Assembly: GCA_003569145.1 (NCBI GenBank)
Contig: BGOH01000008.1
Location: 1 to 64,000 of the forward strand
DNA length: 64,000 nucleotides
Source: Clavibacter sp.
Lineage (GTDB): Bacteria > Actinomycetota > Actinomycetes > Nanopelagicales > Nanopelagicaceae
Direction of reading: 5' to 3'
A program made the position numbers and the translations under genes. Of this stretch, positions 27,901-46,748 are shown piece after piece. Below the pieces are notes generated by a model, which was given only the letters and a program-made list of their open reading frames with translations, was not told the DNA's origin and made no database searches. Numbering within the stretch: the first letter of the stretch is position 1; every line of letters begins with the position of its first letter.

Positions 27901-28175
27901 ATGAGCTTGGATTGGCGCCACCGCGCTGCCTGCCGCGATATTGACCCTGAACTCTTCTTTCCTGTTGGAAATACTGGGCCTGCGATTGCTCAAATTGAAG
28001 AAGCTAAAAAGTCTGTATGCCTTGCATAGTTAGACAAGATTGTTTGCAATGGGCACTTGAAAGCGGCCAAGACTCTGGAGTCTGGGGCGGGCTATCTGAG
28101 GATGAAAGACGAGCAATGAAGCGCCGTGCTGCTAGAAATCGTGCACGTTTATCTGAAAATAACTTCGAGGAGTAA
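27901..28175 (+). CDS. whiB1: WhiB1-type iron-sulfur regulator, single frameshift in an A-run at 28006-28010
   Basis: MSLDWRHRAACRDIDPELFFPVGNTGPAIAQIEEAKK / VCMPCIVRQDCLQWALESGQDSGVWGGLSEDERRAMKRRAARNRAR; next to pdtaS as in M. tuberculosis. Confidence 0.85.
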
Positions 28176-45314: not shown

Positions 45315-45608
45315 TTAAGCTGGACGGCGCTTAAGGCGACGGCGTTCACGCTCTGATAGTCCGCCCCAGATTCCAAAGCGCTCATCATGTGCCAGAGCGT
45401 ATTCAAGACACTCTTGTCTGACCTCACATGAGAGACAAACTCGCTTAGCCTCACGGGTTGAACCACCTTTTTCAGGGAAGAAAGCTTCCGGATCGGTTTG
45501 GGCACATAGCGCTCGCTCTTGCCACGATAGCTCAACGATCTCGCCATTTCCCAATTGGATACTTGGACCAGGAATGAAAGTCTGCTCTATTCGACGAGCA
45601 TCAGTCAT
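45315..45608 (-). CDS. whiB2: WhiB2-type iron-sulfur regulator
   Basis: ELSWQERALCAQTDPEAFFPEKGGSTREAKRVCLSCEVRQECLEYALAHDERFGIWGGLSERERRRLKRR; synteny with manB/DUF3499 genes. Confidence 0.88.
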   Translation of the reverse strand: MTDARRIEQTFIPGPSIQLGNGEIVELSWQERALCAQTDPEAFFPEKGGSTREAKRVCLSCEVRQECLEYALAHDERFGIWGGLSERERRRLKRRPA

Positions 45609-45621
45609 CAGTTATACCCCT

Positions 45622-45651
45622 AAAAAACAGAGCCCACGCCTGATGGTGGGC
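45622..45651 (-). terminator. Terminator-like hairpin plus T6 immediately upstream of whiB2
   Basis: Minus strand: GCCCAC-CATCAGGC-GTGGGC followed by TCTGTTTTTT. Confidence 0.65.
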
Positions 45652-45664
45652 CTACTAGGACCTA

Positions 45665-45693
45665 ATTACACGCTTGTTATTCGGATGTGTCAA
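45665..45693 (-). promoter_or_regulatory. Sigma70-type promoter for whiB2
   Basis: Minus strand TTGACA (45693-45688), 17-bp spacer, TGTAAT (45670-45665). Confidence 0.65.
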
Positions 45694-45770: not shown

Positions 45771-46748
45771 CTAATTACTGATTATTTTCTCAAATATTTT
45801 TTCATTGCTTGCTATTGAAACATTAGGTGCGATATAGCAATTATCAATTATCGAACCATCACCAATACTCGCCCCTGCCGAAATAATTGAGCCCTTAATT
45901 TGGCAGTTCGCTCCAATTACTGCTCCAGATTCAATTGCAGAACCATCAGAAATTATTGCTGTGGCATCCACCGCTGCATCTTTAGCGATCATTACTCCAT
46001 AAACTACTCCCCTAGTTGCAGGTGATATCGCAGGATTTAAAATCAAATCTCTTGAAGCTTTGATATATGAAGCTGGGGTCCCCATGTCAATCCAATATGA
46101 GTCATCGACATATCCATATAGAGCGCCCTTGCTCTTTAAAAGTTCTGGAAAAGTCTGCCTCTCAACACTTACGACGCTATCTTGGGGGATCTGCGCAATT
46201 GCGCTTCTATTAAAAATATAACAACCAGCATTAATAGTATTAACCTTTGGCTGATCCATCTTTTCCAGAAACTCTAATACCTTGCCATCTTGATCAAGTG
46301 GAACGCAGCCATAAGCACGGGCATCATCAACTCTTACTAAGTGCAGAGTCACATCAGCGCCCTTGCTTTCATGAAACTGCGCCTGCGCTCTTAGATCATG
46401 GCCACTTAAAACATCACCATTAAAAATAAAGACAGATTCATCTTCTGCTAGGTTTAAAAACTTTGCTGCATTTGAGATTGCTCCGCCAGTTCCTAGGGGT
46501 TGCTTCTCTATTGCATACTTAATTGAAATGCCAAACTTTGAGCCATCGCCAAAGTAAGGCTCGAAAACCTCAGCTAGATATGAAGTTGCAAGGACTATCT
46601 CAGTGACTCCAGCTGCTTGAGCTCTAGCAATTTGATGCTCTGTAACTGGTGCTCCTGCAACTTTTAGCATCGGCTTTGGAGTATTTTTTGTAAGTTCTGC
46701 AAGGCGAGTTCCTCTGCCACCAACGAGCAAAATAGCCTTATTTATCAT
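45771..46748 (-). CDS. NDP-sugar pyrophosphorylase (mannose-1-phosphate guanylyltransferase-like)
   Basis: AILLVGGRGTRLAELTKNTPKPMLKVAG, VFIFNGDVLSGHDL, C-terminal hexapeptide repeats. Confidence 0.85.
   Translation of the reverse strand: MINKAILLVGGRGTRLAELTKNTPKPMLKVAGAPVTEHQIARAQAAGVTEIVLATSYLAEVFEPYFGDGSKFGISIKYAIEKQPLGTGGAISNAAKFLNLAEDESVFIFNGDVLSGHDLRAQAQFHESKGADVTLHLVRVDDARAYGCVPLDQDGKVLEFLEKMDQPKVNTINAGCYIFNRSAIAQIPQDSVVSVERQTFPELLKSKGALYGYVDDSYWIDMGTPASYIKASRDLILNPAISPATRGVVYGVMIAKDAAVDATAIISDGSAIESGAVIGANCQIKGSIISAGASIGDGSIIDNCYIAPNVSIASNEKIFEKIISN

What the first reader, a model, noticed from the sequence alone, without database searches (positions are those of the whole stretch)
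45609..45693. whiB2 leader packs a canonical promoter and a terminator-like hairpin into ~85 bp before the start codon
On the minus strand TTGACA-17 bp-TGTAAT is followed, just after the expected start site (~45658), by GCCCAC-CATCAGGC-GTGGGC, TCTG and TTTTTT, then the whiB2 ATG at 45608. The hairpin/U-tract lies between promoter and gene. It is either the terminator of the upstream NDP-sugar pyrophosphorylase gene (stop at 45771) placed after the whiB2 promoter, or a 5'-UTR attenuator. Transcription attenuation is established for mycobacterial whiB7, but I know of no such description for whiB2.
Basis: partly seen in the sequence, partly recalled or inferred. Interest (0 to 1): 0.62.

Follow-up and report, generated by a model that had tools for sequence, protein, structure and literature searches.

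The report
whiB2 promoter with 5'-leader hairpin
The stretch before a cell-division regulator gene (whiB2) in a freshwater-type actinobacterium is a normal promoter that carries a repressor-binding palindrome known from mycobacteria, followed by a small RNA hairpin that relatives keep without the U-run a terminator needs, so it is probably part of the mRNA leader and not a switch that stops transcription.

Summary
In detail: TTGACA-17-TGTAAT, a GC-rich hairpin, U6 and the whiB2 ATG lie where stated, and hairpin plus U6 is rarer than chance in this window. The terminator/attenuator reading is mostly not supported. Across 23 genomes of the genus the stem is kept with compensatory changes (0/500 shuffles) and stays 10-13 nt after the -10, while the distance to the upstream gene varies from 11 to 92 nt. 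The U-tract occurs only in the window's own subclade (8 of 23; none between hairpin and ribosome site in 67 leaders of other genera, apart from one run of five). So the hairpin belongs to the whiB2 mRNA; most likely it is a 5'-end stem-loop affecting stability or translation (function inferred). It lies upstream of whiB2 in 74 of 80 named actinobacterial loci (at most 2 mismatches; shuffled 1/80), and the McdR orthologue is present in the genus. A terminator confined to the window's subclade is not excluded.

The parts
45315..45608 (-). whiB2 (97 aa, WhiB/Wbl family)
   Evidence: ORF; Whib Pfam model E 1.6e-27; orthologue in 23 of 24 genus genomes at 91-100% identity
45688..45693 (-). -35 element TTGACA
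   Evidence: sequence; TTGAC kept in the family leaders read
45665..45670 (-). -10 element TGTAAT, 17-bp spacer
   Evidence: sequence; kept in the family and in Streptomyces-like relatives; in Streptomyces the mapped developmental whiB promoter -10/TSS lies in the BldO footprint with TGxAATTxCA (PMC5485038)
45664..45681 (.). McdR-type operator AATAACAAGCGTGTAATT, exact match to AATnACAnnnnTGTnATT, over spacer and -10
   Evidence: only exact match in the window, one of two in the genome; motif and repression of whiB2 from PMC9040748; 74/80 named actinobacterial whiB2 loci within 2 mismatches
45656..45658 (-). inferred transcription start (7-9 nt after the -10)
   Evidence: inference from promoter spacing; not mapped
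45631..45652 (-). leader hairpin GGCCCAC-CATCAGGC-GTGGGCT
   Evidence: covariation in the genus and in a second genus
45622..45627 (-). U6 tract, restricted to the window's subclade
45617..45621 (-). Shine-Dalgarno-like AGGGG, 8 nt before ATG
   Evidence: sequence; AGGAG or GGGAG at the same place in relatives
45771..46748 (-). upstream gene, mannose-1-phosphate guanylyltransferase-like (manB type)
   Evidence: NCBIfam NF052502 E 2.4e-122, 408 bits, below its 440 cut-off

Best explanation
This is the ordinary whiB2 promoter of a Nanopelagicales-type actinobacterium. Housekeeping RNA polymerase starts whiB2 at about 45656-45658 (inferred); a MerR-family repressor orthologous to mycobacterial McdR binds the palindrome over the spacer and -10 and blocks initiation (inferred by homology). 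The transcript begins, within a few nucleotides of its 5' end, with a short stem-loop just before the ribosome-binding site. That stem-loop is a selected RNA structure of the whiB2 mRNA (shown by covariation), most likely a 5'-end element that sets mRNA stability and/or translation (inferred); it is not the terminator of the upstream gene and not a conserved transcription attenuator. The U6 run is confined to the window's subclade.
For: Promoter and operator: exact 18-bp McdR motif; the motif mediates McdR repression of whiB2, with half-site and spacer-length mutants, in PMC9040748; the MerR protein BldO represses whiB from the same -10/TSS region in Streptomyces (PMC5485038); whiB2-wide conservation, 25 exact, 24 one-mismatch and 25 two-mismatch of 80, shuffled controls 1 of 80 at 2 or fewer; McdR orthologue in 20 of 24 genus genomes and 7 of 7 high-quality ones, 65-66% identical in mycobacteria, in the order gcvH-FHA-ftsR-nuclease-mcdR. 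Hairpin as RNA: genus stem 91% paired cells, covariation score 0.351 vs 0.172 shuffled (0/500) and at most 0.094 when slid; second genus 89.7%, 0.252 vs 0.142 (0/500); own permutation p 0.0003; leaders of 13 genera fold better than shuffles, Stouffer z -5.9; stem 10-13 nt after the -10 in the genus while the upstream stop to -35 distance varies 11-92 nt. No conserved U-tract.
Against: No transcript data of any kind; TSS, repressor binding and hairpin function are inferred. Single-leader fold z-scores are weak in many cases, and one genus (g10) has mostly lost the hairpin. The window's assembly (81% complete) lacks an mcdR match. U6 is intact in all 8 subclade genomes, and the leader there (97.6% mean identity) is more conserved than the 60 bases upstream of the -35 (84.5%), which would also fit a subclade terminator. 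The -10 lies in the right half of the palindrome here but in the left half in mycobacteria, so the geometry of repression may differ.
Confidence: 0.7

Rival explanations
1. Subclade-specific intrinsic terminator/attenuator: in the window's own lineage the ancestral leader stem-loop gained a U6 run and now ends a fraction of whiB2 transcripts, perhaps conditionally.
For: Hairpin plus U6 expected 0.08 times per window, seen once, exactly here; U6 unchanged in 8 genomes, leader more conserved than the DNA upstream; the one stem change there (L011, U to C) strengthens the pairing.
Against: Three bases (CUG) separate stem and U-run unless a bulged extension forms; stem only 6-7 bp; U6 absent from the sister L020 (GTTTATAG), from 14 others in the genus and from other genera; no supported antiterminator fold; the U-run leads straight into the SD, where an unstructured linker has its own use.
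Confidence: 0.17
2. Terminator of the upstream manB-type gene placed inside the whiB2 leader, insulating it from read-through.
For: Same strand; the genes are close (5-92 nt from stop to -35), and no other terminator-like site was found between them in the window.
Against: Position is tied to the whiB2 promoter, not to the upstream stop; it would also block whiB2; the U-tract is not conserved.
Confidence: 0.05
3. Translational switch: the CUCC(U) segment just after the -10 pairs with the Shine-Dalgarno and encloses the hairpin.
For: MFE of the longer leader pairs UCCUA with UAGGGG; complementarity visible in several genera (g1, g10, g13).
Against: The segment lies upstream of or at the expected start site; over all leaders own pairs are no better than permuted ones (p 0.46); the same TGTAATTCTCC extension occurs at the second operator site.
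Confidence: 0.06

Closest known systems
McdR/ResR (Rv1830)-whiB2 operator of mycobacteria (PMC9040748, PMC10336103)
   Same: Exact AATnACAnnnnTGTnATT motif at the whiB2 promoter; orthologous regulator present in the genus next to ftsR and an FHA gene
   Different: Here the right half-site holds the -10 and the palindrome lies over the spacer; in mycobacterial loci the left half overlaps the likely -10 and the motif reaches the start site. Binding not shown here.
BldO-whiB in Streptomyces (PMC5485038)
   Same: MerR-family repressor on the -10/TSS of whiB; same TGTAATT core
   Different: BldO's footprint is centred on another repeat (TGxAATTxCA); whether BldO and McdR are orthologues was not tested.
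whiB7/wblC uORF transcription attenuation
   Same: Wbl gene with a hairpin and U-run in the 5' leader
   Different: Leader ~48 nt, no conserved uORF, no supported alternative fold, U-run not conserved.
5'-terminal mRNA-stabilising stem-loops (ompA type; from general knowledge)
   Same: Hairpin within a few nt of the mRNA 5' end, upstream of the SD, structure kept while sequence drifts
   Different: No decay data here.

Membership tests
McdR (Rv1830)-type whiB2 operator | AATnACAnnnnTGTnATT with fixed 4-nt centre in the whiB2 promoter | tested here: met
   exact match 45681-45664
McdR (Rv1830)-type whiB2 operator | McdR orthologue in the organism | tested here: inconclusive
   20 of 24 genus genomes incl. 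all 7 high-quality ones, but not found in the window's own 81%-complete assembly
McdR (Rv1830)-type whiB2 operator | protein binds the site and represses whiB2 | not testable with these tools
   needs EMSA and reporter
Intrinsic (Rho-independent) terminator | GC-rich stem-loop followed at once by a U-run | tested here: inconclusive
   7-bp stem, 8-nt loop, then CUG, then U6
Intrinsic (Rho-independent) terminator | stem and U-run conserved together in relatives | tested here: not met
   stem conserved; U-run in 8/23 of the genus and not in other genera
whiB7-type attenuator | translated uORF in the leader | tested here: not met
   leader ~48 nt; the only start-like codon (GTG at 45637, five codons) lies in the stem without an SD and its frame is not conserved (sequence)
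whiB7-type attenuator | mutually exclusive terminator/antiterminator folds | tested here: not met
   no competing conserved helix seen; the candidate 5' pairing fails permutation
Known structured RNA family (Rfam 15) | covariance-model match | tested here: not met
   only chance-level hits far below gathering scores

The most novel reading that the evidence does not exclude
In the window's subclade the leader stem-loop has become a real transcription attenuator of whiB2, layered on McdR repression: the first attenuation described for the cell-division Wbl gene whiB2, and one built on a ~48-nt leader without a uORF.
Probability: 0.12. Interest if true: 0.6.

Novelty: new member of a known kind. 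Interest (0 to 1): 0.36.

Why it matters
whiB2 is an essential division regulator in mycobacteria and the sporulation-division switch in Streptomyces. Finding the mycobacterial McdR operator at the whiB2 promoter across actinobacteria, down to streamlined freshwater lineages, suggests that the McdR-WhiB2 circuit is old and general and not a mycobacterial peculiarity. The leader hairpin adds a possible second, RNA-level layer in one family. It also shows that the hairpin/U-run seen in one genome should not be taken for a conserved attenuator.

Tried and rejected
Rfam search of the leader: nothing. Whole-leader fold z-score: uninformative, replaced by covariation and by the TSS-to-SD region across genera. 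Anti-SD/SD pairing: looked striking by eye (CUCCU/AGGAG), but own pairs equal permuted pairs, and CTCC is shared with the second operator site. MtrA and WhiA sites were considered from memory for the conserved spacer and dropped once the exact McdR motif was found. Literature searches for whiB2 term-seq or attenuation found no description (the last discusses whiB7 and ilvB1). The manB identity figures are distorted by ungapped comparison and are not used. The MAFFT alignment misplaces two rows (L017, L019); hand-paired arms give the same answer.

Full report
What was checked. The leader was read on the minus strand. The gene is whiB2 (Whib model E 1.6e-27), and the gene upstream is a mannose-1-phosphate guanylyltransferase-like gene ending at 45771. 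A perfect GC-rich stem followed within 4 nt by at least six T is found once in the 64 kb against 0.08 expected, so the coincidence is real even though the loose terminator pattern is not enriched.

Comparison within the genus. The whiB2 protein was found in 23 of 24 genus genomes, and the DNA upstream was read in all 23. They share TTGAC, a spacer ending in ACANG(A/C)G, TGTAAT and, 10-13 nt later, a stem-loop. The stem sequence changes a great deal: GGCCCAC/GTGGGCT in the window, GGCCCGC/GTGGGCC, GGTCCCG/CGGGGCC, GCCGGCC/GGTCGGC, GGTGGCT/AGCGACC, GCCGAC/GTCGGC elsewhere, mostly with matched changes on both arms. On the MAFFT alignment 91.2% of cells pair; the covariation score 0.351 is reached by none of 500 shuffles and falls to at most 0.094 when the arms are slid. 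A permutation on the nine distinct arm pairs gives p 0.0003. The shuffle controls do not correct for relatedness; the slid controls keep it, and agree.

Comparison within the family. Leaders of 12 further genera were read. Nearly all place a stem-loop just after the expected start site, with unrelated sequences; a second genus with 14 alignable leaders shows covariation of its own (0.252 vs 0.142, 0/500). Taking one mean z per genus, leaders fold better than dinucleotide shuffles (Stouffer -5.9). One genus (g10) has short leaders with little structure. A structure that persists while sequence, loop length and stem composition drift is what selection on RNA folding gives; a protein operator would keep sequence and spacing.

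The U-tract. A run of six T between stem and ribosome-binding site is present in 8 of 23 genus leaders, all in the window's subclade; its sister L020 reads GTTTATAG and the others ACTGTCTTAGGAG or similar. In 67 leaders of other genera no such run is found there (one run of five, in L081; a run of six in L058 lies after the SD). The stem is therefore widespread and the U-run local. Within the subclade the leader is 97.6% identical on average against 84.5% for the 60 bases upstream of the -35, so the U-run may have some use there; it could act as an unstructured linker before the SD as well as a terminator.

Not the upstream gene's terminator. The distance from the upstream stop to the -35 varies from 11 to 92 nt in the genus and is as small as 5 nt in another genus, while the hairpin keeps its distance to the whiB2 -10. 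Almost no other gene in the window ends in a comparable hairpin with U-run.

Spacer and -10 together read AATAACAAGCGTGTAATT, an exact copy of AATnACAnnnnTGTnATT. In mycobacteria this is the operator through which McdR (Rv1830, MerR family) represses whiB2; half-site or spacer-length changes abolish the effect (PMC9040748; binding to the M. tuberculosis whiB2 promoter also in PMC10336103). In Streptomyces another MerR-family protein, BldO, represses whiB from a footprint over the -10 and start site (PMC5485038). Of 80 named whiB2 loci, nearly all actinobacterial, 74 have the motif within two mismatches upstream of the gene, against 1 of 80 mononucleotide-shuffled sequences; mycobacterial and most Nocardia loci are exact. 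Two arrangements exist: with the -10 in the right half (Nanopelagicales, Micrococcales, others) or in the left half (mycobacteria, Nocardia, Amycolatopsis). The McdR orthologue lies in the genus in the order gcvH-FHA-ftsR-nuclease-mcdR, in 20 of 24 genomes and all 7 high-quality ones, 65-66% identical to the mycobacterial proteins. It was not found in the window's own assembly, which is 81% complete.

How it most likely works. Shown by sequence comparison: promoter, operator and stem-loop are conserved; the U-run is not. Inferred: polymerase starts at about 45656-45658; McdR blocks initiation; the mRNA carries a hairpin within a few nucleotides of its 5' end, in front of the SD. Of the known roles of such hairpins, protection of the 5' end and tuning of translation fit best. 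A pairing of the CUCC segment with the SD was tested and rejected, and the segment lies upstream of or at the expected start; the same TGTAATTCTCC extension at the second operator site suggests that it is part of the promoter/operator element.

Verdict. Observation confirmed; interpretation partly supported. The leader is an instance of known kinds (a McdR-type operator and a structured 5' leader) in a lineage where neither has been described in the papers searched. A subclade attenuator is possible, at roughly one in six, and easily tested.

Noticed in passing
G000:C4:88865-88882 (L172 1501-1518); same neighbourhood in L173, L175, L184, L186, L187, L188, L180: Each of six genus genomes searched has exactly two perfect AATnACAnnnnTGTnATT sites: whiB2 and one beside a crgA-like division gene, next to TTATCCAC-type DnaA-box-like sequences; the reversed-pattern control gives none. 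The same operator may thus link whiB2 to a division gene, perhaps near the replication origin.
   Followed up: partly
whiB2 loci L106-L120 and L201-L268: The operator sits in two registers relative to the -10 (right half or left half holds the -10), and Streptomyces-type promoters appear to carry two overlapping imperfect copies.
   Followed up: partly
window 27913-28133, + strand: A second WhiB-like reading frame in the window is broken: two overlapping Whib matches in different frames, one with a TGA and a TAA inside. A similar paralogue is an open frame of about 93-130 aa in most relatives, so this is a pseudogene or an assembly error.
   Followed up: no
L079: One relative's whiB2 leader contains a tandem array of about eight copies of an 11-bp unit (AAGGCACCAAT) between promoter and SD.
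   Followed up: no
window 1-64000: Almost no gene in the window ends in a canonical hairpin/U-run terminator, so termination here may mostly be of another kind, such as Rho-dependent.
   Followed up: partly
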